DNA of 64,000 nucleotides from Cupriavidus pinatubonensis. Lineage in GTDB: Bacteria; Pseudomonadota; Gammaproteobacteria; Burkholderiales; Burkholderiaceae. This document shows, piece after piece, positions 29,557-60,952 of this stretch. The number at the start of each line of letters is the position of its first letter. Position 1 is the stretch's first letter. The notes below the pieces were generated by a model that saw nothing but the letters and a program-made list of their open reading frames with translations, had not been told where the DNA came from and did not search any database. Where the stretch lies: NCBI RefSeq assembly GCF_019602855.1, contig NZ_CP080769.1, forward strand, positions 310,001 through 374,000, read 5' to 3'. Both the position numbers and the translations under genes were made by a program.

Positions 29557-30579
29557 ATGGAAATCGACATCCTCGGCATCGATCTCGCCAAGCATGTGTT
29601 CCAACTACATGGCGCCGACCGCCGTGGACAGGCTGTGCATCGAGCGAAGGTCTCGCGTGGCTCGCTCCTGGAGGCCATGCGCACACTGAAGCCGAGGATG
29701 GTCGTCATGGAAGCCTGCAGCACCGCCCATCACTGGGCACGGCGCTTCCAGTCGCGCGGCATTGAGGTCCGGCTGATCAGTCCACAGTATGTGTCGCCCT
29801 TCGTCAAGACCAACAAGAACGATCGCAACGACGCCGAAGCAATTGTCGAGGCCGCCAGCCGGCCCGTGATGCGTTTCGTTTCAGTCAAATCGGTTGAGCA
29901 ACAGGACATCCAGGTTGCGCACCGCATGCGTGCAATCCTGCTACGCCAGCGTACGGCCATGATCAACCGAATGCGCGGACTGCTCGGTGAGCGTGGACTC
30001 ACGATTTCTCGCTCACCCGAGGCGTTCAAGCGAGCCATCCCGGACCTACTCAGCAAGAGTGCCGACGAACTGACGTCGTTCTGCCAGACGCTGATGACTG
30101 AAATGTTGCAGCACCTGCAGGCGATTGAGGAACGCGTGCATCTGATCGAAGCGTCGATCCAGTCGTTTATGAAGCGATCCGCGCTCTGCAAGAGGATCGC
30201 GGAAGTGCCTGGCATTGGTCCGATTACCGCCACGGCCATGGTTGCTGCTGTCGGCGACGCGAAGCAATTCAGGAATGGCCGACATCTGGCGGCGTGGCTC
30301 GGCCTGGTGCCGCGCCAGTACTCGTCGGGCGGTAAGGCTCGTCTGCACGGCATTAGCCGGCGCGGCGACACATACTTGCGGACTTTGCTCATTCACGGGG
30401 CGCGGGCGGTCCTCCGCTACGCAACAAAAAAGGTTGATCCGCTAAGCATCTGGCTGCAGCAGCTGATCGCGCGGCGCGGGCACAATTGCGCGGCAGTGGC
30501 GCTGGCCAATAAGAACGCGCGCGTGATCCGAGCGCTGCTCAGCAGTGACGCGACCTATGTGACGCGAACCGCGGCGTAA
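29557..30579 (+). mobile_element. IS110-family transposase, full length
   Basis: A 340-residue transposase with both IS110 domains. The N-terminal DEDD (RuvC-like) catalytic set reads D9 in 'GIDLAKHVFQLHG', E52 in 'MEACS', and D89/D92 in 'KNDRND'. The C-terminal transposase_20 domain has 'VPGIGPITATAMVAAVGDAKQF' and the serine-bearing 'LVPRQYSSGGKARLHGISRRGD'. No stop or shift, so it may be active. IS110 elements usually lack clear inverted repeats, and the ends were not located; the coordinates given are for the gene. Confidence 0.95.
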
Positions 30580-31338: not shown

Positions 31339-31470
31339 GGAATCCTCCTTCGGCATGGCTCAGGGTCATGCTCGGCATTGCACACGTAGCCGAACGAAGA
31401 ATCAAGAGGCGCGCGGACTCCGGGGCCAGGTCATTCGCATGCTGCCATCGATGCCAAGCCCTCAAATGAA

Positions 31471-31494
31471 CAAGGGCCCCCGAAGGAGCCCTTG
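31471..31494 (-). terminator. hairpin terminator of tmRNA copy 1
   Basis: CAAGGGCTCC and GGGGCCCTTG pair around TTCG, a stable tetraloop. The following TTCATTTG is only moderately U-rich. An identical hairpin follows copy 2. Confidence 0.7.
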
Positions 31495-31778
31495 TCAGTA
31501 ACTTTTCTGTTTCGAGGTCAGTTACAACCCAAGGCGGCTGTTAGGCGGCCAATGCAAACTTTTCGTCGTTAGCATTTACTTCGATTTAGTTTTAACGTCT
31601 TCTCTGACGAGTTGCCTCACGACCCTATCTCCCCCTGTCGAAACCAGGTCAGGCCCATCAGAAGCGCACTGCCCGTCCAATGTGCTTCTGGTGGACCTGG
31701 GCGGAATCGAACCGCCGTCCAGAAGGCCTTCAAGAAGAAGGTTCACAACCATTATCGGGAACCGTGCAGCACCCAACA
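31471..31778 (-). ncRNA. ssrA: tmRNA, circularly permuted (two-piece), copy 1
   Basis: Read on the minus strand, the order is acceptor piece, intervening segment, coding piece. The acceptor piece ends with T-arm GGCGG-TTCGATT-CCGCC, then CAGGTCC and the encoded ACCA, with the CCA 3' end at 31689. A 32-base spacer (31657-31688) forms an AGAAGC/GCTTCT hairpin. The coding piece starts at 31656 with GGGCCTG, which pairs with CAGGTCC to give a 7-bp acceptor stem holding the G3-U pair that marks alanine acceptors. The tag frame at 31541-31573 encodes ANDEKFALAA then TAA. A GC-rich hairpin (31471-31494) closes the gene. All parts needed for trans-translation are intact. Permuted tmRNA genes are known in betaproteobacteria; two copies in one window are unusual. 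Confidence 0.92.
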
Positions 31779-32076
31779 GTCTAAATTCTACGCGTCCTCC
31801 CGGCAGCGTCAAGGCAGTTTGCGTGGGGCTCGACAAGGACCCGACCCGGTAAAACTCCAACGACTGCCCCGCATTGACCGCCCGCTTGAGCCACGAGGGC
31901 ATCTCGCCCTGCCCGTCCCAGGTCAGCCCTTCCGCGTTGCGATAGCAGACCACCGGCGGCGGCGGCGGCCGCACCGCGTCGAGCTCTTCGAGGGTGAGCC
32001 CGTAGTCGTCCATCTGCGTCTGGATCCAGCGGATCGCGTCCGTCCGCTCGGTTTTTGCTGTCATCGCTGCCGTCAC
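31576..32076 (-). CDS. H-NS-family small protein, copy 1, stop codon lost
   Basis: The first 80 or so residues match the copy at 60283: 'DAIRWIQTQMDDYGLTLEELDA', a proline run, then the H-NS C-terminal DNA-binding pattern 'VVCYRNAEGLTWDGQGEMPSWLKRAVNAGQSLEFYRVG'. In copy 2 a TAG follows 'GSL'. Here that codon is TCG (31831-31833), so the frame runs through the tmRNA promoter and gene to a stop at 31576, adding about 85 meaningless residues. The start is GTG at 32076 or ATG at 32064; the ATG used in copy 2 is AAG here. Probably decaying, or a short natural protein with an unstructured tail. Confidence 0.6.
   Translation of the reverse strand: MTAAMTAKTERTDAIRWIQTQMDDYGLTLEELDAVRPPPPPVVCYRNAEGLTWDGQGEMPSWLKRAVNAGQSLEFYRVGSLSSPTQTALTLPGGRVEFRLLGAARFPIMVVNLLLEGLLDGGSIPPRSTRSTLDGQCASDGPDLVSTGGDRVVRQLVREDVKTKSK
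31785..31812 (-). promoter_or_regulatory. sigma-70 promoter of tmRNA copy 1
   Basis: On the minus strand TTGACG (31812-31807) and TAGAAT (31790-31785) are spaced 16 bases, close to consensus. Copy 2 keeps both boxes and the spacing although the spacer bases differ, which argues for selection on the promoter. Confidence 0.75.
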
Positions 32077-32150
32077 TGCTGTCGTTGCCTTCGTCCTGGA
32101 TGTTAGCCAGCGCCGCCGCCCCCGAGTCGTTGCCCGGCTCTTCCCCTTGG

Positions 32151-32600
32151 GCTTCCTGCGCAGTGGTCGCCGAACTTCCGGCCTGCCAAGTTTGCTAGAT
32201 CAGAATGGGGGCGGACCGGCCGCGCCCGCCAACCTGTCGTTCAGTACAAGAGATCGATTAGAAAACGCTCGGGCTTCTTGCCAATCCACTACAAGGGCTT
32301 CCCCGTTGGCGCAAGCGCCAATCAGTTTGTCTGGAGCACCCATTTGCCGTGCCGGAGCTATGTGAGAAGGTGAAGGACTGCAGTACTACAAACGGTCATA
32401 GTGGGCCGCTGGCCCGGACCCTGATGTAAGACGCGCTCGAGGGCCTCGTTCGATTATCGGGCTTGGCGTCCCCCAACTTTTGCCAGGCACGCCTCGCGCG
32501 GGTCCAACCCGCTTCACATCACCGCTGGCAGTGCAAAGTGATCTAGCTGCTCATGTGTTCCGCTGTAGCTCTTTGAAATCCGGTTGATCGAGTTATCTGC
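32151..32600. other. intergenic stretch, no recognisable gene
   Basis: Short frames only. Lies between the H-NS-like gene and an IS110 remnant and is likely mobile-element debris. Confidence 0.4.
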
Positions 32601-50467: not shown

Positions 50468-51313
50468 ATGGCGCACCCGACCAAGAACCTGGCCGAAGGG
50501 CCTTCTTCACCTCTACAACCATCAATGGATCCAATTCTTCGGTGGGCAGGAAGCAAGCGCAAAGTGCTGACCACCTTGCGTGGCGTCTCTCCGCCTTCTT
50601 TTGAGCGGTATATCGAGCCGTTCGCGGGCTCCGCCGTACTATATTTTGATCTGTTACCTGATGTGGCAGTGCTCGGCGATCTCAATCCCGAGGTTGTCGC
50701 CACGTATTCCGCCATTAGAGACTCTGCAAAGGAAGTTTGCGACTACCTTTCCTCTATACCGAAGACGAAAGAAGCATATTACACCCTTCGAGAACTAAAG
50801 CCAGAATTATTGACCGAGAGTCAGCGCGCGGCGCGTCTGATTTTCCTGATGAAGGCATGCTTCAATGGCGTCTATCGAACGAACCGGAATGGAAAGTTCA
50901 ATGTTCCTTTAGGAAGTCATTTCTATGCCCTTCCCTCTGCTGAGGACCTCATATCAGTCTCGAACCAACTGAAAAACACCAAACTAGTGTGCGGCGACTT
51001 CGCCACCACCATTGGGGAAGCGCGAGAAGGTGACTTTATATACTTGGACCCCCCATACAGCGATGGCACTAGATTCCGAGGAGAGTATAGCTACAAAGGA
51101 GCGTTTCAAGCCCCAGACCTGCAGAGACTTATTAGCATTTGTCGAGAGCTTACCAAGCGACGCGTCAAGATATTGCTTTCCTTTAAAGAGCATGAGGAAC
51201 TTTCGATAAATTTGAGCGGCTGGACGGTCAAGAAAATAGCTGTCACTCGGAGCGTCGCAGGTTTTACGCATTCACGACGAACTGCCCGCGAAATTCTTGC
51301 GTACAATTTTTAA
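50468..51313 (+). CDS. DNA adenine methyltransferase, Dam/D12 class
   Basis: About 281 residues. The SAM-binding motif 'RWAGSKRK' is at 25-32, 'YIEPFAGSAVLYF' at 48-60 and the catalytic DPPY at 194-197, in the alpha order of Dam/DpnM-type N6-adenine methylases. Target-recognition sequence between these motifs cannot be read from sequence alone. A start at 50525 is possible. The next gene follows after 3 bases. A+T content is clearly above that of the sulfur region. In this context it likely protects self DNA for the three genes downstream, as in restriction or other modification-based defence systems; that is inference. Confidence 0.93.
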   Translation: MAHPTKNLAEGPSSPLQPSMDPILRWAGSKRKVLTTLRGVSPPSFERYIEPFAGSAVLYFDLLPDVAVLGDLNPEVVATYSAIRDSAKEVCDYLSSIPKTKEAYYTLRELKPELLTESQRAARLIFLMKACFNGVYRTNRNGKFNVPLGSHFYALPSAEDLISVSNQLKNTKLVCGDFATTIGEAREGDFIYLDPPYSDGTRFRGEYSYKGAFQAPDLQRLISICRELTKRRVKILLSFKEHEELSINLSGWTVKKIAVTRSVAGFTHSRRTAREILAYNF

Positions 51314-51316
51314 TGT

Positions 51317-52513
51317 ATGGAAACCACAAAAAGTCGCGTTCGACTGGCCCTCCTTAGTGACCTGCACGCGTACCACCCCGAGAGTGGAAAAAGTGGAGTT
51401 TCTTATCTTCCAACTAGTCCGCGCATCTCTGACCCGGACCCATTCTCAAGTTTAGCGGAACTGATTAATAGAGAGTCTTTGGCGGTTGATCTCGTCATCT
51501 GCGCTGGCGATATTTGCGATAAAGCAGATTTTCGAGGCTTTCAATATGCATGGACCAAGCTCCATGATATTGCATCGGCCATGGCGGCGAAAGAACTAAT
51601 CGCCACGTGTGGAAATCATGATCTGAATTCTCGACATATCGATTCTGCCGAAGACCCAGACCCGAAGGGGTCTCTTCAAACTATACAGCCTCAGTTTCCT
51701 TTTGAGTCTGATGACCTGTCTAACCATTTCTGGGCCAGAAATTTTGCAATACTCGAGCCTCTTCCCGGGATCCGCATATTAGTACTCAATACAAGCGCAT
51801 ACCATGGTGGAAGCTCCGGCGAAGAGCAGCATGGCAGAGTGTCGAAGCGGACTATTGAAGCAATTGAAAAAAAATTGCTAGCGATGGAACATGCGGATCT
51901 CAATATTCTGCTCTGTCATCATCACGTTCGTCCTCTCAAGGGACTTTGGGGCAACGCACCTGACAGCGAATTCATGCAGAAAGGTGGGGAGCTTCTTAAT
52001 ATGTTGACCAGTACAACCGTATCCCCATGGCTGGTTCTTCATGGACATCGCCATACCCCAAACCTGGAACATTCCAGAGACCCTGATTGCGTAGTTGTCG
52101 GTGCATCAAGTTTTTCCGCACAGATTCCTGGGAAGTTGAATCAGTTCCACATCCTCGACGTTGTTGTCGACCACTCCTTACCACAACCACTTGCTGGCAC
52201 CATCGAAACGTGGAGTTGGACCATAACAGGCGGCTGGCAAAAGCGACCAGCCTATGAGGAGGAAGACGGTTTTCCGCCGCAATGCGGTTTTGGATCGAAG
52301 TTCTTGCCCAGAGCAATCTCAGATCAAATCACGGGCCTGTTGAAGGATGGACCAGATTACAAAAGCTGGACTGAAGTACTGCAAGTTGTCCCCGACGTGC
52401 AGTTCATGACACCAAAACATTTTTCTCAACTCGAGAAGCTGTTAGCTTCTGCTCAGATAAAGCTACACCGAGATAGCGAAGGGAAATTGACACAAGTGGG
52501 GCGTGCCGTATGA
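51317..52513 (+). CDS. calcineurin-like metallophosphoesterase
   Basis: A 398-residue protein with every metal-site motif of the family: 'SDLHAYH' (14-20), 'GDICD' (64-68), 'GNHD' (99-102), 'LLCHHHV' and 'LHGHRHTPN'. The family includes SbcD/Mre11 nucleases and phosphodiesterases. The C-terminal 150 or so residues ('WSWTITGGWQKRPAY' onward) are not recognised. It begins 3 bases after the methylase and overlaps the ATPase gene by ATGA, so the three are one translational unit. A nuclease acting with the ATPase is the natural hypothesis. Confidence 0.92.
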   Translation: METTKSRVRLALLSDLHAYHPESGKSGVSYLPTSPRISDPDPFSSLAELINRESLAVDLVICAGDICDKADFRGFQYAWTKLHDIASAMAAKELIATCGNHDLNSRHIDSAEDPDPKGSLQTIQPQFPFESDDLSNHFWARNFAILEPLPGIRILVLNTSAYHGGSSGEEQHGRVSKRTIEAIEKKLLAMEHADLNILLCHHHVRPLKGLWGNAPDSEFMQKGGELLNMLTSTTVSPWLVLHGHRHTPNLEHSRDPDCVVVGASSFSAQIPGKLNQFHILDVVVDHSLPQPLAGTIETWSWTITGGWQKRPAYEEEDGFPPQCGFGSKFLPRAISDQITGLLKDGPDYKSWTEVLQVVPDVQFMTPKHFSQLEKLLASAQIKLHRDSEGKLTQVGRAV

Positions 52514-54414
52514 AAAATGAGATAGCATCGCCTTTCTTTGGTGCATATAACGCCAGGCATATTAATCCAGAGGAAGTCGCAAGCCAATTTGTCCCTTCCG
52601 GGAAATTCTGGGAACTCATTGGATTAAGAAACTCTTTGCTTGTTGGCCCGCGAGGAAGCGGGAAAACGCATCTGCTCAAAATGCTGCAGCCGAAGGCACT
52701 CGCCGCTTGGCAAGGGGATGAGGCTGAGAGGGCCCGCAGCAGCATTGACTACTGGGGTGTTTTTACCCCAGCCGACGTTAATTGGAAAATTCAAGTCGAT
52801 AGTAAAGCTGAAAGCCTTATCGATTTAGACGAGGCGCCGTTCACTAACGCTGTGTTTTTGTCTCACTTTAGAGAGGCTTTTATTACATGTCTTCTGCAAA
52901 TTACACGAGATCGCCCGCGAAATGATCATGGAGGTGCCTCCACAAAAGTCCATCTTCCTCGAGAAAAGGAGGTGGAACTTTGTATTGCCCTTGCAGAGGT
53001 CTGGCGACTTCCTTTGGGTGTACCATCACTAGATGGACTGAAAGTCGCTCTAGTGGAGGAACTTGCTCAACTTGGTTCAACTCGATCACGGAATCAGTTT
53101 TCCGAGTATGTGCTCCGACTGCTTAACCTAAATCTTCTCGGTGCAGCCAGGGAAATCTCTGAACGTTTTGTGGCGGTAACTGGTTTGTATACGGCACGTT
53201 GGGCACTATGTTTTGACGAATTGGAGATCGCGCCTCAATCGATACAAAAGGACTTATTTCAGTACCTGCGATCAACAGACCAGCGGTTCGTTTTCAAACT
53301 AGCAATCAGCCCGTCAAATGACGCATCTGGTCTCCTTAATTCCGAAGGTGCAGCGTCGGCAGGGAACGATTACGATGCAATTCCACTTTGGTATACGGAT
53401 CAGCGTGAAAGAGAATCATTTTGCCAGCGCCTGTGGGAGAAGCATGCTGCAGGCACGCCTGCTGAGAATTTTCTTCCTCAAACGGTCCTACAACGTTCGA
53501 GGTTTCAATACTCCAACCAAGAAATGAGCCACGGGCCCAGACGTTATCACGAGACAAGCCCATGGCGAAACGATTTTCAAGAACTGGAGCGCAAAGATCC
53601 TTCCTTTGCCGTTTATTTGCGACGAAATGGAATCAGGACGTCTGCACTTGATGCAACGTCTAGAGATAAGATGAACTCTGTGGTGCGTAAAGTTGCCCCG
53701 CTCGTAGGGTTTCGTAATGCTTATTTTGCTGGTGCAAAGAAGGATGGGCCGGGCAATACCTTAGCCAGAAAGGTTCTCAAACGAGCGCCCCCCGAAGTCT
53801 TCTCTGGATGGGAGGCGATATGTACGGCAACCGAAGGAAATCCCCGCTGGTTCAGCGGCATAGCTTCGCGGCTACTATTGCGTTGGCGGCAAAGCCCTAG
53901 CGGCAAGGCTCTAACACGCGAGCAACAGACACAGGAATTAGAAACTTCCGGGCGAAAGTTCCTTGCTTGGATCAACGCGATACCAGTTGAAAAATCCGAT
54001 AAAGGGGATGAGACTTTGGGTCTTTATGATCTGATATCCATCATCGCGAAATTTTTTGAGCACAGTGCACTGGGCCATGAGTTTACAGCCGACCCTGTTT
54101 TAGCATTTACCGTCGACCAGGGAACTCCGGAGCAAATTCAGAAACTTGTCATGGCTGCTCTAAATATCGGAGCAGTCGTCATATTTAATGACGAGGACGT
54201 GAATTACACTCTAGTTTCTCCGATCGGCAAAACGTTTCGTATAGTACATCTTTTGGCCCCTCATTTCAATTTACCAATGAGACGCGGGAAGAGTAGGAAG
54301 CTTTCTACGATTTTACGAAAGCAAATAGGGCAGCTCAATAAATTCGGAATTTCCAACGCTATTTCAAATAGCATCGAAGATGGAAGACCTCAACAAATGG
54401 GGCTATTCACATGA
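52510..54414 (+). CDS. ORC/CDC6-like AAA-type P-loop ATPase
   Basis: A 634-residue protein with Walker A GPRGSGKT at 46-53 and Walker B 'WALCFDELE' at 231-239. The opening 'NARHINPEEVASQFVPSGKFWELIGLRNSLLVGPRGSGKTHLL' and the later 'FQYLRSTDQRFVFKLAISPS' (sensor-like) fit bacterial ATPases called ORC-CDC6-like. A long helical C-terminal half contains 'ATEGNPRWFSGIASRLLLRW'. No transmembrane segment or nuclease motif. ATGA overlaps join it to genes on both sides. Probably the motor or sensor of the system. Bacterial proteins of this type occur in uncharacterised defence loci. Confidence 0.85.
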   Translation: MKNEIASPFFGAYNARHINPEEVASQFVPSGKFWELIGLRNSLLVGPRGSGKTHLLKMLQPKALAAWQGDEAERARSSIDYWGVFTPADVNWKIQVDSKAESLIDLDEAPFTNAVFLSHFREAFITCLLQITRDRPRNDHGGASTKVHLPREKEVELCIALAEVWRLPLGVPSLDGLKVALVEELAQLGSTRSRNQFSEYVLRLLNLNLLGAAREISERFVAVTGLYTARWALCFDELEIAPQSIQKDLFQYLRSTDQRFVFKLAISPSNDASGLLNSEGAASAGNDYDAIPLWYTDQRERESFCQRLWEKHAAGTPAENFLPQTVLQRSRFQYSNQEMSHGPRRYHETSPWRNDFQELERKDPSFAVYLRRNGIRTSALDATSRDKMNSVVRKVAPLVGFRNAYFAGAKKDGPGNTLARKVLKRAPPEVFSGWEAICTATEGNPRWFSGIASRLLLRWRQSPSGKALTREQQTQELETSGRKFLAWINAIPVEKSDKGDETLGLYDLISIIAKFFEHSALGHEFTADPVLAFTVDQGTPEQIQKLVMAALNIGAVVIFNDEDVNYTLVSPIGKTFRIVHLLAPHFNLPMRRGKSRKLSTILRKQIGQLNKFGISNAISNSIEDGRPQQMGLFT

Positions 54415-55355
54415 AGAACCTTCGCCCAAGCTTTAGAAATATAGACCCAGAAACCGAACTAAATGAAAGCTACGATCTGGCTGCATTTGCTTTAGGCTTC
54501 GAATCTAGGGCGATTGAATTCTCTTCTCTGCCGCAGATCGCGCAAAGAAAGGCAGTAGCATTTGGTTTCGATCACGGTCAGCAATTAGCGTACGCGGGGA
54601 ATAAATTACGGTTTGAAGCCATCGGTGCAACCATAATCGAAAATTTATCGGATACCGAATTTGAGCTAGCATTTAGAAAGTCACTATATTCCTTAAGCAA
54701 GGATGAATCACGTCATATCTTCGTCGACATATCTTGTTTTAGCCGCTTCCGACTCGCATCCATTGTGCGATCAATATTTGATGCCGCAAGCGACATCAAG
54801 TCTCCCTTGACAGTCGATTTCGCATACTCTTTGGCGAGCTTCGAGAAGCCTATTGCCGATCGACGCCCCAATACTGTCGTGGGCCCGGCTCACCCGGCGT
54901 TCGCCGGATGGTCGCAAGGAGGGTATAACTCGACGGCGGCCGTGCTCGGCCTAGGATATGAGCAGGATCAAGCGCTAGGAGTTGTAGAGTTCCTACAGGC
55001 AGGTGAAGTATGGGCATTTGCACCTACCTCTCCTATTGAGGCGTACCGCCCTGAAGTCGACTGCGCTAACGAGTTATTGCTGTCGGAAATACCAAAGGGT
55101 CATGTGTTAGATTATGATATCACCGCTCCGACCTCAATAATTGCATCGTTGGAGTCGGTTGCGCGAGGTCTAAACACGATGCATAGCGTTGTACTGGTGC
55201 CTTTTGGGCCCAAGATATTCGTTCTGTGTTCGCTTTTGGTGGCAGCATTAAGAAGCGATATGGCGGTTTGGCGAGTTAGCCAAGGCGCCACCATAAAGCC
55301 TCATGATCGAAGAGCGGGCGGTGTTTCCGTGGGATTACGGGCTTCATTTAATTAG
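54411..55355 (+). CDS. unknown protein, fourth gene of the methylase operon
   Basis: A 314-residue soluble protein with no family I can name. Conserved-looking features are 'AAFALGFESRA' (residues 24-34), 'VAFGFDHGQ' (49-57) and 'IFVDISCFSRFRLASIVRSIF' (103-123), the last resembling D-I-S-S-M-S-R motifs seen in other unknown proteins next to ORC-like ATPases. No signal peptide or membrane helix. The start overlaps the ATPase stop (ATGA). It may be the effector or target-recognition partner. A hairpin follows at 55371-55388. Confidence 0.75.
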   Translation: MKNLRPSFRNIDPETELNESYDLAAFALGFESRAIEFSSLPQIAQRKAVAFGFDHGQQLAYAGNKLRFEAIGATIIENLSDTEFELAFRKSLYSLSKDESRHIFVDISCFSRFRLASIVRSIFDAASDIKSPLTVDFAYSLASFEKPIADRRPNTVVGPAHPAFAGWSQGGYNSTAAVLGLGYEQDQALGVVEFLQAGEVWAFAPTSPIEAYRPEVDCANELLLSEIPKGHVLDYDITAPTSIIASLESVARGLNTMHSVVLVPFGPKIFVLCSLLVAALRSDMAVWRVSQGATIKPHDRRAGGVSVGLRASFN

Positions 55356-55967: not shown

Positions 55968-57383
55968 CTAGCACCGGTTTGCAGCCGTCGGGCTGATCCA
56001 GCGGACGAGAACGCCTCTCTGCTTTTCATCCTCGCGAACGAGGAGTTTCTGATCTCGCATCTTGCCGAATAGGCTCGTGGCTTGCTCCGGATGCTCAAGG
56101 GCAAGGAGGTCAAGCGCTTGCCGATTTGTGATGTGTCCGTGCCGATCGACGAACTTGGTGATCACACTGGTCGGATCTTCCTTTGGCTCGCGCTTTAAGG
56201 TCACGTATAGGTTCACATCATCATTTTTTAGAATCGGATCGATGAACCCGGCCTGGCGCATGCGCTCGTAGACAGTGTTGATACCCTCTCCCAGATCCTT
56301 GTTGGGTGCATCGGGGTACTTCGCAAGCATTCGAACCAGTTTGGGGTTCCTAGAGAAACGCGCATCGCGAATATTGTTGACCGTCACATAGCCTGGCAGG
56401 CGGCCGGGACTGCGGAATTCGATTCGATTCCGATAGACGCTAATCAAAACGTTGTCCGAAACGCCATAGTCACGATGAAGGACAGAATTCACAAGGAGTT
56501 CGAACAGGGCTTCGTCCGGATACTTCGGTGATTGCAGACCATCCATTGTCCAGCATTGACATCGACCGATGACCTCTTTCAGCGTGTCAAAGGCATGATC
56601 AATTTGCCGACGCAAAGGCCCTTCAATGGTATGGCTGTCATCCGTCAACGCATCGCGTTCGATTTCCTCGTCAGCCGAATCGTAGCGAACGATTCTAACC
56701 GCGCATTGTCGCGGCATGACCGAGCTGGGGTTGTCGGCAAAGAGCAGGACTAGTGCGACAGTCGGCTGCATGGTCTCGGGAAGAAGGCTCTCTTGTACCG
56801 CAAAATTGAACGGATCTTTATCGGTGATCTTCAACGTCGCCAGAAAGCTCCTGAGTTGCTCGCCATCGACAATCTTTTCCGCACGCACCGACGGTAACAC
56901 GGTGTCCTCTTCCGACGTCACGCCCTTTGCGCGCATAAGATCCGCAATTCTCGCGCCTTTCAAAACTTGGGACTGTGCCCCCCTGCGCAGCAAGACTTCG
57001 CCCTTTGCGGTTTCATGGACCTTCTGGCTCTTGCGAATGATGAGTCGGAGCACATAGTCGCGTTTGTAGCCACCCTCCCGGTACAAGAACCTGTGCTCGA
57101 AATCGATGCCGGGATTCAGCGAGGATAGGCTCGCAATGACGGCGTTGTAGCTCTCGATCGATTCCGCTCCCTGCCACCGATCGATGGGATTTGGATACTT
57201 TTGGGGGTTGGCATCTTCGATGCCGATCACAACGGTTCCCCCTTCTGCGTTGGCAAATGCCACTGCTACATCCTGCACCTGATTTGGCTTGATACGAACT
57301 GACTTTCGATCAAAGAAGTCACTCTCCTGCTGTGTGCACAGGTCAATGACTTCCTCGTTCCCGACTCCTACCACAGTGCTCAT
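55968..57383 (-). CDS. AlbA_2 (Schlafen-type) ATP-binding protein
   Basis: A 471-residue protein with an N-terminal AlbA_2 domain ('QESDFFDRKSVRIKP', 'DVAVAFANAEGGTVVIGIED'), a central region, and a C-terminal HATPase_c_4-like domain ('YPDEALFELLVNSVLHRDYGVSDNVLISVYRNRIEFRSPGRLPGYVTVNNI', 'EGINTVYERMRQAGF') followed by a winged-helix-like tail. This two-domain layout is often annotated as RecG-like or as a transcriptional regulator; some relatives are in defence islands. Monocistronic and opposite to the methylase operon. Confidence 0.85.
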   Translation of the reverse strand: MSTVVGVGNEEVIDLCTQQESDFFDRKSVRIKPNQVQDVAVAFANAEGGTVVIGIEDANPQKYPNPIDRWQGAESIESYNAVIASLSSLNPGIDFEHRFLYREGGYKRDYVLRLIIRKSQKVHETAKGEVLLRRGAQSQVLKGARIADLMRAKGVTSEEDTVLPSVRAEKIVDGEQLRSFLATLKITDKDPFNFAVQESLLPETMQPTVALVLLFADNPSSVMPRQCAVRIVRYDSADEEIERDALTDDSHTIEGPLRRQIDHAFDTLKEVIGRCQCWTMDGLQSPKYPDEALFELLVNSVLHRDYGVSDNVLISVYRNRIEFRSPGRLPGYVTVNNIRDARFSRNPKLVRMLAKYPDAPNKDLGEGINTVYERMRQAGFIDPILKNDDVNLYVTLKREPKEDPTSVITKFVDRHGHITNRQALDLLALEHPEQATSLFGKMRDQKLLVREDEKQRGVLVRWISPTAANRC

Positions 57384-58505: not shown

Positions 58506-59630
58506 CTACCGAGACTTGCGTTGTCGCCTGAGCGGAACCATCAGGTCCTCGGCAAGACTGGCAGCGTCAAAGCGCAGGGCGCCGCGAGGGCGGTCAACCG
58601 TGACCGGAGGCCTTTCCCCGCCGCCCCCAAAACCCATTGTTCCGGAGTTCGGGCTGGCGTCATCTTCGGCCTGCGTCCGCCATCCCAAATGCTCGCTTGC
58701 ATCGATGCGCGCGGCCAGCGAGACGTGGGTCAGCTTTTGGGTCGGGTCAATGAGTTCCAAAGCCCAATCGGCGTAGGCAATTCCTGCCGTCAGTTGCCGC
58801 AGAACGATTTCCTCGATCAATGCGAAGCTCGCGCCGAAGCCACCGTGATTGCGCGGCCCGGGAGGTTCGAGTGACAAGCGCAGCACCAACGCACCTTGCT
58901 CATCGAGCTGAATCCTGGCCCCGCCATCCTGTTCAAGATAAAGAGCCGCTCCTACGATGTCCGACTCCATGCCCTTGCTGCTATCGAACAGCCTGGGCTC
59001 GCCGAACAGAGCGCGCTGGTGCAGATCGGTGACGAGTTTTGGCTGTTCCAGCGCGGCAGGCCGCAAGATGCGCTGAAGGGGGCCACCCGCAATCGCCAGG
59101 TTCAGCATTGGCGACTGGATCGAATGACCGTTTCGGTTGCGGGGCAGGATGCTGATTACGGACTGCGTGAGCGCATTCACATCAAGCGGAGCGGTGGCAT
59201 GCGCCAGCTGGTAGTCGTGAATTGCCCGCGTCACCAAATCCTTGAGCTCGTCCGGCGTCTTGAAGCCGCGCCGGAAATAGCCCTGCTGCCAGCCCTGTAC
59301 GTCGGACACAAACTTGGCCTGTTGCGCGTCGCGCGTTACGCCCTCCTGAACAAAAGCGAGGATCGGTTTGGTGTCACGGGCTTCCAGGAATTCTTCATGG
59401 GTTGGCGAGACGCCGGACGTCCCCTGCACGTAGCCGTAATGCTCTCCGAGAACCAGCACCACGAGGTCCGCCGAGCGCAGACCCTGCAGACAGGCTATTT
59501 GCGGGGAGTTCGGCTGCGCGCCGAAATCTTCCGCCATGACCGGCTCGTGGCGAAGTGTCGTGACAGCAGAGCGGGCGGCCTCGCGGAATGGCTCGAACCC
59601 ACGGATCAGGGAGCTCACAAAAACCTTCAT
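58506..59630 (-). CDS. DUF4062 domain protein (TIR-like N-terminus)
   Basis: Start at the Met of MKVFVSSLIRGFEPFREAA (59630); thirteen earlier codons are unlikely. About 374 residues. The N-terminal DUF4062 domain has 'KVFVSSLIRGFEPFREAARSAV' and 'SADLVVLVLGEHYGYVQGTSGVSPTHEEFLEA', a nucleotide-binding-like fold related to TIR-type domains and found in STAND-like and defence proteins. The C-terminal 200 residues are unrecognised and glycine-rich in one place (GFGGGGE). No partner gene overlaps it. Confidence 0.8.
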   Translation of the reverse strand: MKVFVSSLIRGFEPFREAARSAVTTLRHEPVMAEDFGAQPNSPQIACLQGLRSADLVVLVLGEHYGYVQGTSGVSPTHEEFLEARDTKPILAFVQEGVTRDAQQAKFVSDVQGWQQGYFRRGFKTPDELKDLVTRAIHDYQLAHATAPLDVNALTQSVISILPRNRNGHSIQSPMLNLAIAGGPLQRILRPAALEQPKLVTDLHQRALFGEPRLFDSSKGMESDIVGAALYLEQDGGARIQLDEQGALVLRLSLEPPGPRNHGGFGASFALIEEIVLRQLTAGIAYADWALELIDPTQKLTHVSLAARIDASEHLGWRTQAEDDASPNSGTMGFGGGGERPPVTVDRPRGALRFDAASLAEDLMVPLRRQRKSR

Positions 59631-59803
59631 CTTGCCTCTCACGTTGCTGGGAGTGAATAGCAACAGCATATAGCATGATTGCGTCCCGGGACCCCAAGCG
59701 AACGCCGGGCTTTCCAGCCCGGCGACGGCATCCGAAATCCGGCAGCTTCACGCAGACGATTATGGGAAGTCGTTCGCCAGACCTCCAGACCTCCGTCAAT
59801 GCC

Positions 59804-59899: not shown

Positions 59900-59923
59900 A
59901 TCGATGCCAAGCCCTCAAATGAA

Positions 59924-59947
59924 CAAGGGCCCCCGAAGGAGCCCTTG
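59924..59947 (-). terminator. hairpin terminator of tmRNA copy 2
   Basis: Identical to the hairpin at 31471-31494 (10-bp stem with one mismatch region, TTCG loop). Confidence 0.7.
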
Positions 59948-60231
59948 TCAGTAACTTTTCTGTTTCGAGGTCAGTTACAACCCAAGGCGGCTGTTAGGCG
60001 GCCAATGCGAACTTTTCGTCGTTAGCATTTACTTCGATTTAGTTTTAACGTCTTCTCTGACGGGTTGCCTCACGACCCTATCTCCCCCTGTCGAAACCAG
60101 GTCAGGCCCATCAGAAGCGCACTACCCGTGCAATGTGCTTCTGGTGGACCTGGGCAGAATCGAACCGCCGTCCAGAAGGCCTTCAAGAAGAAGGTTCACA
60201 ACCATTATCGGGAACCTTGCGGTCCCAACGC
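59924..60231 (-). ncRNA. ssrA: tmRNA, circularly permuted (two-piece), copy 2
   Basis: Same layout as copy 1: CCA 3' end of the acceptor piece at 60142, spacer 60110-60141, 5' end of the coding piece at 60109, tag frame 59994-60026 (ANDEKFALAA, TAA), hairpin 59924-59947. The five differences from copy 1 are a silent TTT/TTC change in the tag, a C to U in the T-stem that leaves a G-U pair, two in the removed spacer and one in the coding piece. The promoter is intact. Both copies therefore look functional. Confidence 0.92.
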
Positions 60232-60236
60232 TCCAG

Positions 60237-60264
60237 ATTCTACGCCCGCTGCCGGCAGCGTCAA
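60237..60264 (-). promoter_or_regulatory. sigma-70 promoter of tmRNA copy 2
   Basis: TTGACG (60264-60259) and TAGAAT (60242-60237) on the minus strand with 16-base spacing, the same boxes as in copy 1. It lies about 20 bases after the stop of the H-NS-like gene. Confidence 0.75.
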
Positions 60265-60282
60265 GGCAGTTTGCGTGCGGCT

Positions 60283-60585
60283 CTACAAGGACCCGACCCG
60301 GTAAAACTCCACGCTCTGCCCCGCATTGACCGCGCGTTTGAGCCACGACGGCATCTCGCCCTGCCCGTCCCAGATAAGCCCTTCCGCGTTGCGGTAGCAG
60401 ACCACAGGCGGCGGCGGTGTGGGCGCTGGCGGGGGCGGTGGGGGCGGCGGTGGCGCGAAGCACCCCGCCGCGTCGAGCTCTTCGAGGGTGAGCCCATAGT
60501 CATCCATCTGCGCCTGGATCCAGCGGATCGCGTCCGCCCGCTCAGTGTTTGCTGTCATCGCTGCCGTAACTGCTTTCGTTGCCAT
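60283..60585 (-). CDS. proline-rich H-NS-family small protein, copy 2 (intact)
   Basis: About 100 residues from the ATG at 60585 (AGGA just ahead) or 92 from the ATG at 60558. In order: helical 'RADAIRWIQAQMDDYGLTLEELDAAGCFA', a run of 16 or so prolines broken by Ala-Pro-Thr, and an H-NS-like DNA-binding tail 'VVCYRNAEGLIWDGQGEMPSWLKRAVNAGQSVEFYRVGSL'. The coiled-coil dimerisation domain of true H-NS is missing. It ends 19 bases before the tmRNA promoter. Likely a partner or antagonist of full H-NS proteins; that is inference. Confidence 0.75.
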   Translation of the reverse strand: MATKAVTAAMTANTERADAIRWIQAQMDDYGLTLEELDAAGCFAPPPPPPPPPAPTPPPPVVCYRNAEGLIWDGQGEMPSWLKRAVNAGQSVEFYRVGSL

Positions 60586-60650
60586 CGTCCTGATTCTTGG
60601 GTAGCGCCGCCGCCCCCGGCTCGTCGCCCTGTTCTTCGCCCAGCTCATCC

Positions 60651-60952
60651 TGCTGAGCGCCCTACTGACCGTCGCCCTGCGCTTTCGGCGCGGTCACCGC
60701 CGAATGGCCGCCCTTGCGCCGCCTTCCACCACCGCCACCGCCTCGGCTACCGCGAGCCGATCGGCCAGCGCCGCGGCCCGCGCTTCCAGCTTCGCACGGC
60801 CCTCCGCCTGCGCTACCGCGGCTCTTGTTGGCACCAGCCGGAAACCCGCATGAATGCTCGGGCCTGCTACCCCGGAAAATTGCATCAAAAGCAAAGGGAT
60901 ACCTAACAATCGGGCTTGCTAGGGATCGCTTCACCGGTAAATTGCATCGAAA
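60651..60952. other. low-complexity stretch with degenerate direct repeats
   Basis: Minus-strand frames are rich in Gly, Arg and Ala and look like compositional artefacts or a decayed coding tail. At 60858-60964 two imperfect direct copies of a CGGGCyTGCTA...CCGG-AAATTGCATC-AAA-CAA motif lie about 51 bases apart. Confidence 0.4.

What the first reader, a model, noticed from the sequence alone, without database searches (positions are those of the whole stretch)
50468..55355. Four-gene coupled operon: D12 adenine methylase, metallophosphoesterase, ORC/CDC6-like ATPase and an unknown protein
Seen: four genes joined by a 3-base gap and two ATGA overlaps, of clearly lower G+C than the surroundings, next to an H-NS gene, transposase scraps, an AlbA_2 protein and a DUF4062 protein. 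Known: D12 methylases protect DNA, calcineurin-like proteins include SbcD-type nucleases, and AAA ATPases drive many defence complexes. Inference: this is an undescribed or little-described anti-phage or anti-plasmid system in which the methylase marks self DNA and the phosphoesterase, ATPase and fourth protein act on unmarked DNA. The composition matches no classical restriction type.
Basis: partly seen in the sequence, partly recalled or inferred. Interest (0 to 1): 0.85.

Follow-up and report, generated by a model that had tools for sequence, protein, structure and literature searches.

The report
Conserved four-gene DNA-mark-gated defence operon
Four neighbouring bacterial genes (a DNA-marking enzyme, a phosphate-cutting enzyme, a ring-type ATPase and a nucleotide-sensor protein) recur together in distant bacteria and look like an untested immune system that uses DNA methylation to tell self from foreign; the ten searched genomes whose copy lacks the marking enzyme all encode a similar one elsewhere.

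Summary
The genes are a D12/Dam-family methylase, a calcineurin-like phosphoesterase (MPE), an ORC-CDC6-like ATPase and a 314-aa protein that is not unknown but a tandem CARF (nucleotide-sensor) protein of PADLOC's CARF6 family. MPE-ATPase-CARF stand in this order in all 69 loci that hold all three (74 ATPase loci, eight phyla); a D12 methylase is directly upstream in 51 of 74. Operons are about 12 points poorer in G+C than control stretches (19 of 20). Ten searchable genomes lack a D12 gene in the operon; all ten have a Dam-family methylase elsewhere, against a second one in 3 of 46 with it. Only five independent contrasts exist (p 0.0625). In wider relatives ATPase+CARF6 stay while methylase type and third gene (HD-CE, PRTase-CE, kinase, MPE) change. 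Best reading: methylation-gated immunity with the MPE as nucleotide-targeting effector rather than an SbcD-type nuclease. Protection is untested, a flank test showed no clear defence-island signal, and a divergent relative breaks the rule. Its families were already named, so: new variant of a known kind, with resident-Dam substitution as the new, testable part.

The parts
50468..51313 (+). D12/Dam-family DNA adenine-N6 methyltransferase (281 aa)
   Evidence: PF02086 5.5e-36; TIGR00571 dam 193.2 bits, cut-off 114.85; DPPY at 194-197, each residue in 55 of 56 aligned sequences
51317..52513 (+). Calcineurin-like metallophosphoesterase with C-terminal wHTH (398 aa), predicted effector
   Evidence: PF00149 2.6e-11 and PF24408 at residues 323-378; D15, H17, D65, N100, H101, D102, H202, H244, H246 kept in 70 or 71 of 71 (their role as metal ligands is recalled); profile hits Lmo2642 2.1e-7 and Rv0805 2.1e-4 in PDB
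52510..54414 (+). ORC-CDC6-like AAA+ ATPase (634 aa)
   Evidence: PF24389 4.3e-108; Walker A residues G46, R48, G49, G51, K52, T53 in 74 of 74, D236 and E237 in 72 of 74; model pLDDT 87.7; weak fold matches, none with E under 0.001: a BREX BrxC/BrxB/PglZ entry, RdrA, Cdc6
54411..55355 (+). Tandem CARF protein, CARF6 family (314 aa)
   Evidence: PADLOC PDLC01915 1.2e-67; AlphaFold2 pLDDT 95.0 with two Rossmann-like halves; Foldseek matches Cam1 CARF (8t64, probability 1.00, E 4e-3 to 1e-2), Csm6 and Cap4/Cap5 SAVED; CARF signature [DN]X[ST]XXX[RK] of PMC4012209 met at 106-112: D 71, S/T 71, R/K 68 of 71

Best explanation
A methylation-gated immune (probably growth-arresting) system. Step 1 (inferred, supported by the Dam pattern): the D12 methylase, or a resident Dam-family methylase in its place, puts m6A on the host DNA, probably in a GATC-like site. 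Step 2 (inferred from family): the ORC-CDC6-like AAA+ ATPase loads on DNA and, with the CARF protein, reports DNA that lacks the mark; the tandem CARF binds a nucleotide ligand as a second input or as a brake (pocket signature shown; ligand unknown). Step 3 (inferred): activation releases the metallophosphoesterase, which degrades nucleotides or a nucleotide-derived cofactor and stops phage or plasmid replication, possibly at the cost of the cell. Shown here: the families, their co-transmission, intact catalytic residues, the Dam substitution pattern and the exchangeability of effector and methylase. Not shown: DNA site, ligand, substrate, and protection.
For: Order MPE-ATPase-CARF in 69 of the 69 loci that hold all three. 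D12 methylase directly upstream in 51 of 74; gaps within 30 bases in 50 of 51, 70 of 71 and 70 of 71 for the three junctions, with the start codon nearest the junction chosen. MTase and ATPase distances correlate at r 0.84 over 48 loci, 0 of 500 permutations as high. Operons without a D12 gene: 10 of 10 searched genomes have a Dam-family methylase elsewhere, against a second over-cut-off one in 3 of 46 with it, Fisher p 8e-9. Base rate of an over-cut-off Dam-family hit in the window's class: 99 of 350. Independent contrasts on the ATPase tree: 5, mean 4.6 agreeing, 0 opposing. Three loci carry instead a different D12-type methylase overlapping the MPE gene. In 14 wider PF24389+CARF6 loci the third component is PRTase-CE, HD-CE, kinase, ParA-like, MPE or unclear, and a DNA methylase lies in the held stretch in 11; methylase-type motifs occur in 2 of 20 control stretches, both in ORFs of other look. 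MPE active site kept in 71 loci, nearest solved relatives Lmo2642 and Rv0805.
Against: Eight of the ten genomes are Gammaproteobacteria, six of them Vibrionaceae or Pseudoalteromonadaceae, where Dam is usual (recalled), so the raw p-value is inflated; the sign test is only 0.0625, on a quick tree with two long branches. Three of the ten are metagenome-assembled; L097's nearest Dam is only 3 kb away; L082 has 641 bases upstream. Three methylase-bearing genomes have a second Dam, so redundancy is tolerated. A divergent MPE-ATPase-CARF6 locus (L193) has no methylase in the held stretch and its genome no over-cut-off Dam. Flanks showed no clear enrichment in PADLOC families over controls. In L100 the MPE is missing. 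No experiment exists here.
Confidence: 0.55

Rival explanations
1. A restriction-modification-like system in which the phosphoesterase is an SbcD/Mre11-type nuclease that cuts DNA lacking the mark, driven by the ATPase; the CARF protein is a regulator.
For: Methylase partnership and the Dam substitution pattern fit any mark-reading system; weak TIGR00619 (SbcD) match, E 0.042; weak PADLOC 'Endonuclease' effector match, 2e-4, residues 44-111; the MPE carries a wHTH.
Against: Stronger matches are Lmo2642 and Rv0805, the CpdA-type model 6.7e-6 and an anti-phage phosphoesterase model 2.8e-15; the MPE slot is taken by HD-CE and PRTase-CE in related loci, predicted nucleotide enzymes (recalled).
Confidence: 0.2
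2. A cyclic-nucleotide signalling device: the phosphoesterase destroys the ligand that the CARF protein senses (an off-switch), and the ATPase complex itself is the effector.
For: MPE's nearest solved relatives include Rv0805 (its cyclic-nucleotide activity is recalled); CARF fold.
Against: None of the four genes matches a nucleotide cyclase; unlike enzymes (kinase, PRTase-CE, HD-CE) accompany the same pair in relatives, which is odd for a ligand-specific off-switch.
Confidence: 0.12
3. A plasmid- or island-addiction module: loss of the methylase leaves the host DNA unmarked and the triad kills the segregant; defence is a by-product.
For: Found on 4 of 72,556 plasmid records, two of them conjugative, and with low G+C; same logic as R-M addiction (general knowledge).
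Against: Copies relying on a Dam elsewhere in the genome could not act as addiction modules.
Confidence: 0.08
4. A housekeeping set (replication or nucleotide metabolism) unrelated to conflict.
For: ORC-CDC6 name; conserved catalytic sites.
Against: Patchy spread: over-cut-off PF24389 in 10 of 369, 9 of 398 and 7 of 395 sampled genomes, most of them other subfamilies; 2 same-genus and 8 same-family genomes of the window's host have none; low G+C; CARF6 and '-CE' relatives.
Confidence: 0.03

Closest known systems
ORC-CDC6-like ATPase with '-CE' effectors (PF24389, PF24390 PRTase-CE, PF24391 HD-CE, PF24408; I link these names to Nicastro et al. 2023, NAR 51:11479, from memory; the paper was seen only as a reference entry)
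   Same: Same Pfam families; same slot for an exchangeable effector beside ATPase and CARF6
   Different: Here the effector is calcineurin-like with a wHTH, and the methylase is a D12/Dam type apparently replaceable by the host's Dam; whether that paper describes this exact set could not be read
CARF6 family and CARF-kinase-AAA+ fusions (PADLOC PDLC01910-01925; a Zn ribbon-kinase-AAA+-CARF-wHTH fusion is described in PMC4012209, passage read)
   Same: Gene 4 is a CARF6 member; the fusion's ATPase is also PF24389 in L197, L199, and the arginine in the P-loop noted there is R48 here, 74 of 74
   Different: Separate genes instead of one fusion; MPE instead of kinase; D12 methylase
BREX and other methylation/AAA+ systems
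   Same: Mark-linked system with an ORC/STAND-type ATPase; best, weak fold match of the ATPase is chain B of a BrxC/BrxB/PglZ entry, E 1.9e-3 (which subunit is chain B was not told)
   Different: No PADLOC match to BREX proteins among the four at E up to 1
Type II restriction-modification
   Same: Methylase of the Dam kind
   Different: No restriction endonuclease found in the four genes
MADS
   Same: Methylase and P-loop ATPase; only weak matches to mad2 (0.0029) and mad8 (0.0023)
   Different: No other mad match among the four proteins

Membership tests
ORC-CDC6-like ATPase + CARF6 conflict module | PF24389 ATPase over the curated cut-off | tested here: met
   362.9 bits against 27
ORC-CDC6-like ATPase + CARF6 conflict module | Adjacent CARF6 protein | tested here: met
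   PDLC01915 1.2e-67; fold
ORC-CDC6-like ATPase + CARF6 conflict module | Adjacent effector of the calcineurin/HD-CE/PRTase-CE/kinase set | tested here: met
   PF00149 plus PF24408
ORC-CDC6-like ATPase + CARF6 conflict module | Protection against phage or plasmid | not testable with these tools
   needs plating and transformation assays
CARF superfamily | Rossmann-like fold with [DN]X[ST]XXX[RK] after strand 4 | tested here: met
   D106 71 of 71, S/T108 71 of 71, R/K112 68 of 71; signature text; Foldseek Cam1 probability 1.00, though top E-values are other Rossmann-like proteins
CARF superfamily | Binds a cyclic oligonucleotide | not testable with these tools
   no cyclase family among the four genes
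Type II restriction-modification | Cognate methylase | tested here: met
   TIGR00571 over cut-off
Type II restriction-modification | Restriction endonuclease domain | tested here: not met
   none in Pfam for genes 2-4; PADLOC only a weak 'Endonuclease' effector match of the MPE, 2e-4
BREX | PglZ, PglX, BrxC set | tested here: not met
   no such PADLOC matches among the four
SbcD nuclease | TIGR00619 over cut-off | tested here: not met
   13.6 bits against 77.65
DS9_1 anti-phage phosphoesterase (NF053862) | over curated cut-off | tested here: not met
   56.1 bits against 420, model positions 195-453 of 486

The most novel reading that the evidence does not exclude
An immune system whose self-mark is outsourced: the triad reads Gm6ATC-type methylation, carries its own Dam-like methylase where the host has none, and drops it where a resident Dam already marks the genome. 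It punishes unmarked DNA not by cutting it but by nucleotide destruction through one of several interchangeable effectors under a CARF/AAA+ switch. That would separate restriction-modification's recognition logic from DNA cleavage.
Probability: 0.4. Interest if true: 0.8.

Novelty: new variant of a known kind. Interest (0 to 1): 0.62.

Why it matters
If the reading holds, DNA methylation is a self-tag that gates nucleotide-targeting immunity, and a defence system can borrow a resident epigenetic mark. That is directly testable in E. coli K-12 (dam plus against dam minus). It would give a function to Dam-like methylases that have no endonuclease partner when they sit beside this triad, and would predict that disturbing Dam can trigger toxicity in hosts of a methylase-less triad.

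Tried and rejected
Literature: ten searches. None of the listings, and none of the passages read (PMC12839542; PMC10853773; PMC8195603; PMC7824862; PMC4012209), describes this gene set. The papers I judged most relevant from memory (CARF classification 2020; Burroughs and Aravind 2020; Nicastro 2023) are not held. So 'not in print' is not claimed.

Defence-island test: 113 flank proteins (up to six nearest ORFs of 150-560 aa at each of 20 loci) against 103 control proteins from stretches on the same contigs gave scattered PADLOC matches in both: 20 and 42 families, at most two members each in what was shown (first 25 of the 42 shown). No enrichment can be claimed; longer proteins were left out and ORF calling was crude.

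MTase-motif check: a first script failed its positive controls and was discarded; the repeat passed them and found no [DNS]PP[YFW] ORF in the held sequence of nine of the ten loci without a D12 hit, and only a DPPF inside the MPE in the tenth (L096). C5-methylases were not covered there.

Solved-structure searches by sequence gave only P-loop or chance matches for the ATPase and nothing for the CARF protein. Pattern scan: promoter-like sites no more than in shuffles (4 against 5.6); terminator-like sites 15 against 6.9, not followed up. E. coli (DNA level, one Vibrio query), phages and viral contigs: no match.

Rows dropped: L104-L106 (short P-loop matches only); L043 and L100-L102 from the tree (fragments); five loci cut by contig ends (L039, L043, L051, L053, L065) from the methylase comparison; of these L039 and L051 have a Dam-family hit and L053, a 1.3-Mb assembly, has none. 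L100 is an exception: a 91-aa methylase fragment abuts the ATPase and the MPE is missing although there is room. L102's methylase is in two pieces. L074, L075 and L099 (methylase adjacent or 2.3 kb away in another arrangement) were not counted as methylase-less; in each the only Dam-family hit is that nearby gene. In the wider family L196 and L201 were set aside without a CARF test, L174 was fetched but not read, and G540, with the same coordinates as G689, was not fetched.
Full report
WHAT IS THERE. Four ORFs stand head to tail at 50468-55355: a 281-aa D12/Dam-family methylase, a 398-aa calcineurin-like phosphoesterase (MPE) with a C-terminal winged helix, a 634-aa ORC-CDC6-like AAA+ ATPase and a 314-aa protein. 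Gene 4 has no Pfam family, but PADLOC's CARF6 model PDLC01915 matches it at 1.2e-67. Its AlphaFold2 model (68 sequences, pLDDT 95.0) has two Rossmann-like halves (my reading of the strand order). Foldseek finds the Cam1 CARF domain at probability 1.00 (E 4e-3 to 1e-2) and, over long overlaps, Cap4/Cap5 SAVED and Csm6; the best E-values belong to other Rossmann-like proteins, so the claim rests on the sequence match and on the CARF signature [DN]X[ST]XXX[RK] printed in PMC4012209 (passages read), met at 106-112 by D in 71, S/T in 71 and R/K in 68 of 71 sequences. The operon has 48.9% G+C against 60.6% in the rest of the window.

HOW WIDESPREAD. A pattern scan of one genome per species for 84,980 species with a four-sequence ATPase alignment gave 73 loci; three (L104-L106) are short P-loop matches. 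With the window and three plasmid loci (L031-L033; of two Sinorhizobium records with the same scores one was taken) there are 74 ATPase loci. The MPE is present in 71 of the 72 that have room for it (exception L100; L043 and L065 start at the ATPase) and the CARF protein in 71 of the 71 with room; 69 loci hold all three, always in the same order and strand. Record titles name Pseudomonadota, Bacteroidota, Actinomycetota, Acidobacteriota, Planctomycetota, Verrucomicrobiota, Gemmatimonadota and SAR324. Spacing is tight: MPE-ATPase is a 4-base overlap in 36 of 71 and within 30 bases in 70 of 71 (the start codon nearest the junction was chosen, which favours small gaps). In 20 loci (of those with long contigs) the operon was poorer in G+C than a 15-kb stretch at least 35 kb away on the same contig in 19, by 12.5 points on average (Wilcoxon 3.8e-6). 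The window's ATPase finds 4 of 72,556 plasmid records (the same four with the CARF protein) and no phage record of 50,697; viral contigs gave none, nor E. coli genomes at DNA level with a Vibrio query.

CATALYTIC SITES. Walker A residues, and the P-loop arginine R48, are kept in 74 of 74 ATPases; D236 and E237 in 72 of 74. The MPE's DxH, GD, GNHD, H and GHxH residues are kept in 70 or 71 of 71. In the CARF protein D106, Y139, G182, G266 and K268 are kept in 71 of 71. So the sites look functional.

THE METHYLASE RULE. The 74 loci divide as follows: D12 methylase directly upstream 51 (one of them, L102, in two pieces); fragment next to the ATPase 1 (L100); adjacent after the CARF gene 2 (L074, L075); 2.3-3 kb away on the other strand 2 (L097, L099); a different D12-type methylase overlapping the MPE 3 (L045, L047, L048; Pfam; for L045, BLASTP finds only the DPPY region in common with the window's); none found 10; cut by contig end 5. 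I asked whether genomes without a D12 gene in the operon have a Dam-family methylase elsewhere. Ten such genomes could be searched (L038, L049, L063, L064, L077, L079, L082, L088, L096, and L097, whose nearest is 3 kb upstream on the other strand with a second on another contig): 10 of 10 do, each at 277 bits or more against a cut-off of 114.85. L033 is a plasmid record whose chromosome was not searched. Of 46 searched genomes whose locus has the methylase directly upstream, 46 hit and 3 have a second hit over cut-off (L036 marginally, L071, L094); the window's genome has a second one below cut-off. The three with the other D12 type have no Dam-family hit. Fisher p is 8e-9, but clades are shared. 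On a quick ATPase tree the methylase-less state needs 5 changes; five independent contrasts give on average 4.6 agreeing and 0 opposing, p 0.0625, the lowest that five pairs allow. Base rate of an over-cut-off Dam-family hit in 350 genomes of the window's class: 99. L082 has only 641 bases upstream, filled by another ORF; L038, L049 and L088 are metagenome-assembled. Where present, the methylase evolves with the triad: r 0.84 with the ATPase over 48 loci, 0 of 500 permutations as high.

THE WIDER FAMILY. From samples of 369, 398 and 395 genomes, 16 PF24389 loci outside the focal set were read. CARF6 was tested by PADLOC in 14 and found in 14, as a gene or fused; L196 and L201 were set aside. 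The third component is PRTase-CE in 3 (L173, L191, L198), HD-CE in 3 (L171, L192, L194), a kinase fused to the ATPase in 5 (L169, L170, L197, L199, and L200 by reading only), a ParA-like fusion in 1 (L172), an MPE in 1 (L193) and unclear in L195. A DNA methylase lies in the held stretch in 11 of 14: by Pfam in 8 (L169, L170, L172, L173 with generic models only, L191, L192, L198, L200) and by reading motifs only in 3 (L194, four genes away, L197, L199). Not seen in L171 (contig end), L193 and L195; L193's genome has only a 50-bit Dam match, an exception to the Dam rule. As a rough control, methylase-type motifs appear in 2 of 20 control stretches from the focal genomes, both in ORFs that look otherwise. 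So the ATPase-CARF6 pair is the constant part; methylase chemistry (m6A, N4/N6, m5C) and effector are exchangeable.

MECHANISM. A methylase accompanies the sensor pair whatever its chemistry, and where absent a Dam is found in the genome; this is what one expects of a self-mark. The exchangeability of the MPE with HD-CE and PRTase-CE, and its likeness to Lmo2642, Rv0805 and the CpdA model, argue for a nucleotide target. A BREX paper read in passages (PMC12839542) says that phosphoesterases in nucleotide-targeting immune systems act by depleting NTP pools and cites Nicastro et al. 2023 (reference seen; paper not held). The ATPase's fold matches are weak (a BrxC/BrxB/PglZ entry 1.9e-3, RdrA, Cdc6), compatible with DNA-loaded rings but not proof. 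What the CARF protein binds is open.

AGAINST. No protection was tested. The defence-island test was inconclusive. Phylogenetic power is low and eight of the ten genomes are Gammaproteobacteria. L193 and L100 do not fit.

NOVELTY. Every protein belongs to a described family. That the '-CE' families and PF24389 were named together is my inference from names and neighbouring accessions; I could not read that paper. The type II restriction, BREX and SbcD memberships fail the tests listed, and MADS gives only weak matches. I found no account of resident-Dam substitution in ten searches, in a library that lacks most subscription journals. Verdict: new variant of a known kind, interest 0.62.

Noticed in passing
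window 31447-32159 and 59900-60653; also G000 C2:1283317-1284043 and C1:1085663-1086165: The genome carries at least four permuted tmRNA genes with the same tag; two lie in the window inside a direct repeat (755 alignment columns, 87% identical) that brackets a 28-kb stretch including the operon. They may mark integration sites of islands.
   Followed up: partly
window 55968-57383 (-) and 58506-59669 (-): Next to the operon: a Schlafen AlbA_2 protein with HATPase_c_4 that also matches a PADLOC pAgo model at 1.3e-20, and a DUF4062 protein.
   Followed up: no
L063:8001-8327 (+), L064:7468-7791 (-), L038:8158-8490 (+): Three methylase-less triads have a small HTH-type gene just upstream (Pfam for L038 and L063); those of L063 and L064 are 53% identical, perhaps a controller protein.
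   Followed up: partly
L045:7471-8787, L047:6653-8092, L048:7432-8802: A divergent D12-type methylase replaces the Dam-like one and overlaps the MPE gene; one clade on the ATPase tree, no Dam-family hit in these genomes.
   Followed up: partly
L031:11472-14944 (-): A CHAT-domain protein and a second 485-aa metallophosphoesterase lie beside the Methylobacterium plasmid operon, perhaps another conflict system.
   Followed up: no
L099:12884-15172 (-): A DndB-domain protein (PF14072 1.9e-20) sits between the triad and a Dam-family methylase.
   Followed up: no
L058:12783-13655 (+): A second, smaller metallophosphoesterase directly after the CARF gene in Pedobacter.
   Followed up: no
L100 (3,041 bp): Methylase fragment of 91 aa abuts the ATPase, MPE missing: broken or misassembled copy.
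   Followed up: no
window, whole: GATC occurs 387 times against 324.5 expected from dinucleotide shuffles, 0 of 100 as high; may be codon usage.
   Followed up: no
window 29557-30579 (+): A 340-aa ORF of IS110-transposase look (name recalled, no family search), near the left tmRNA copy.
   Followed up: no
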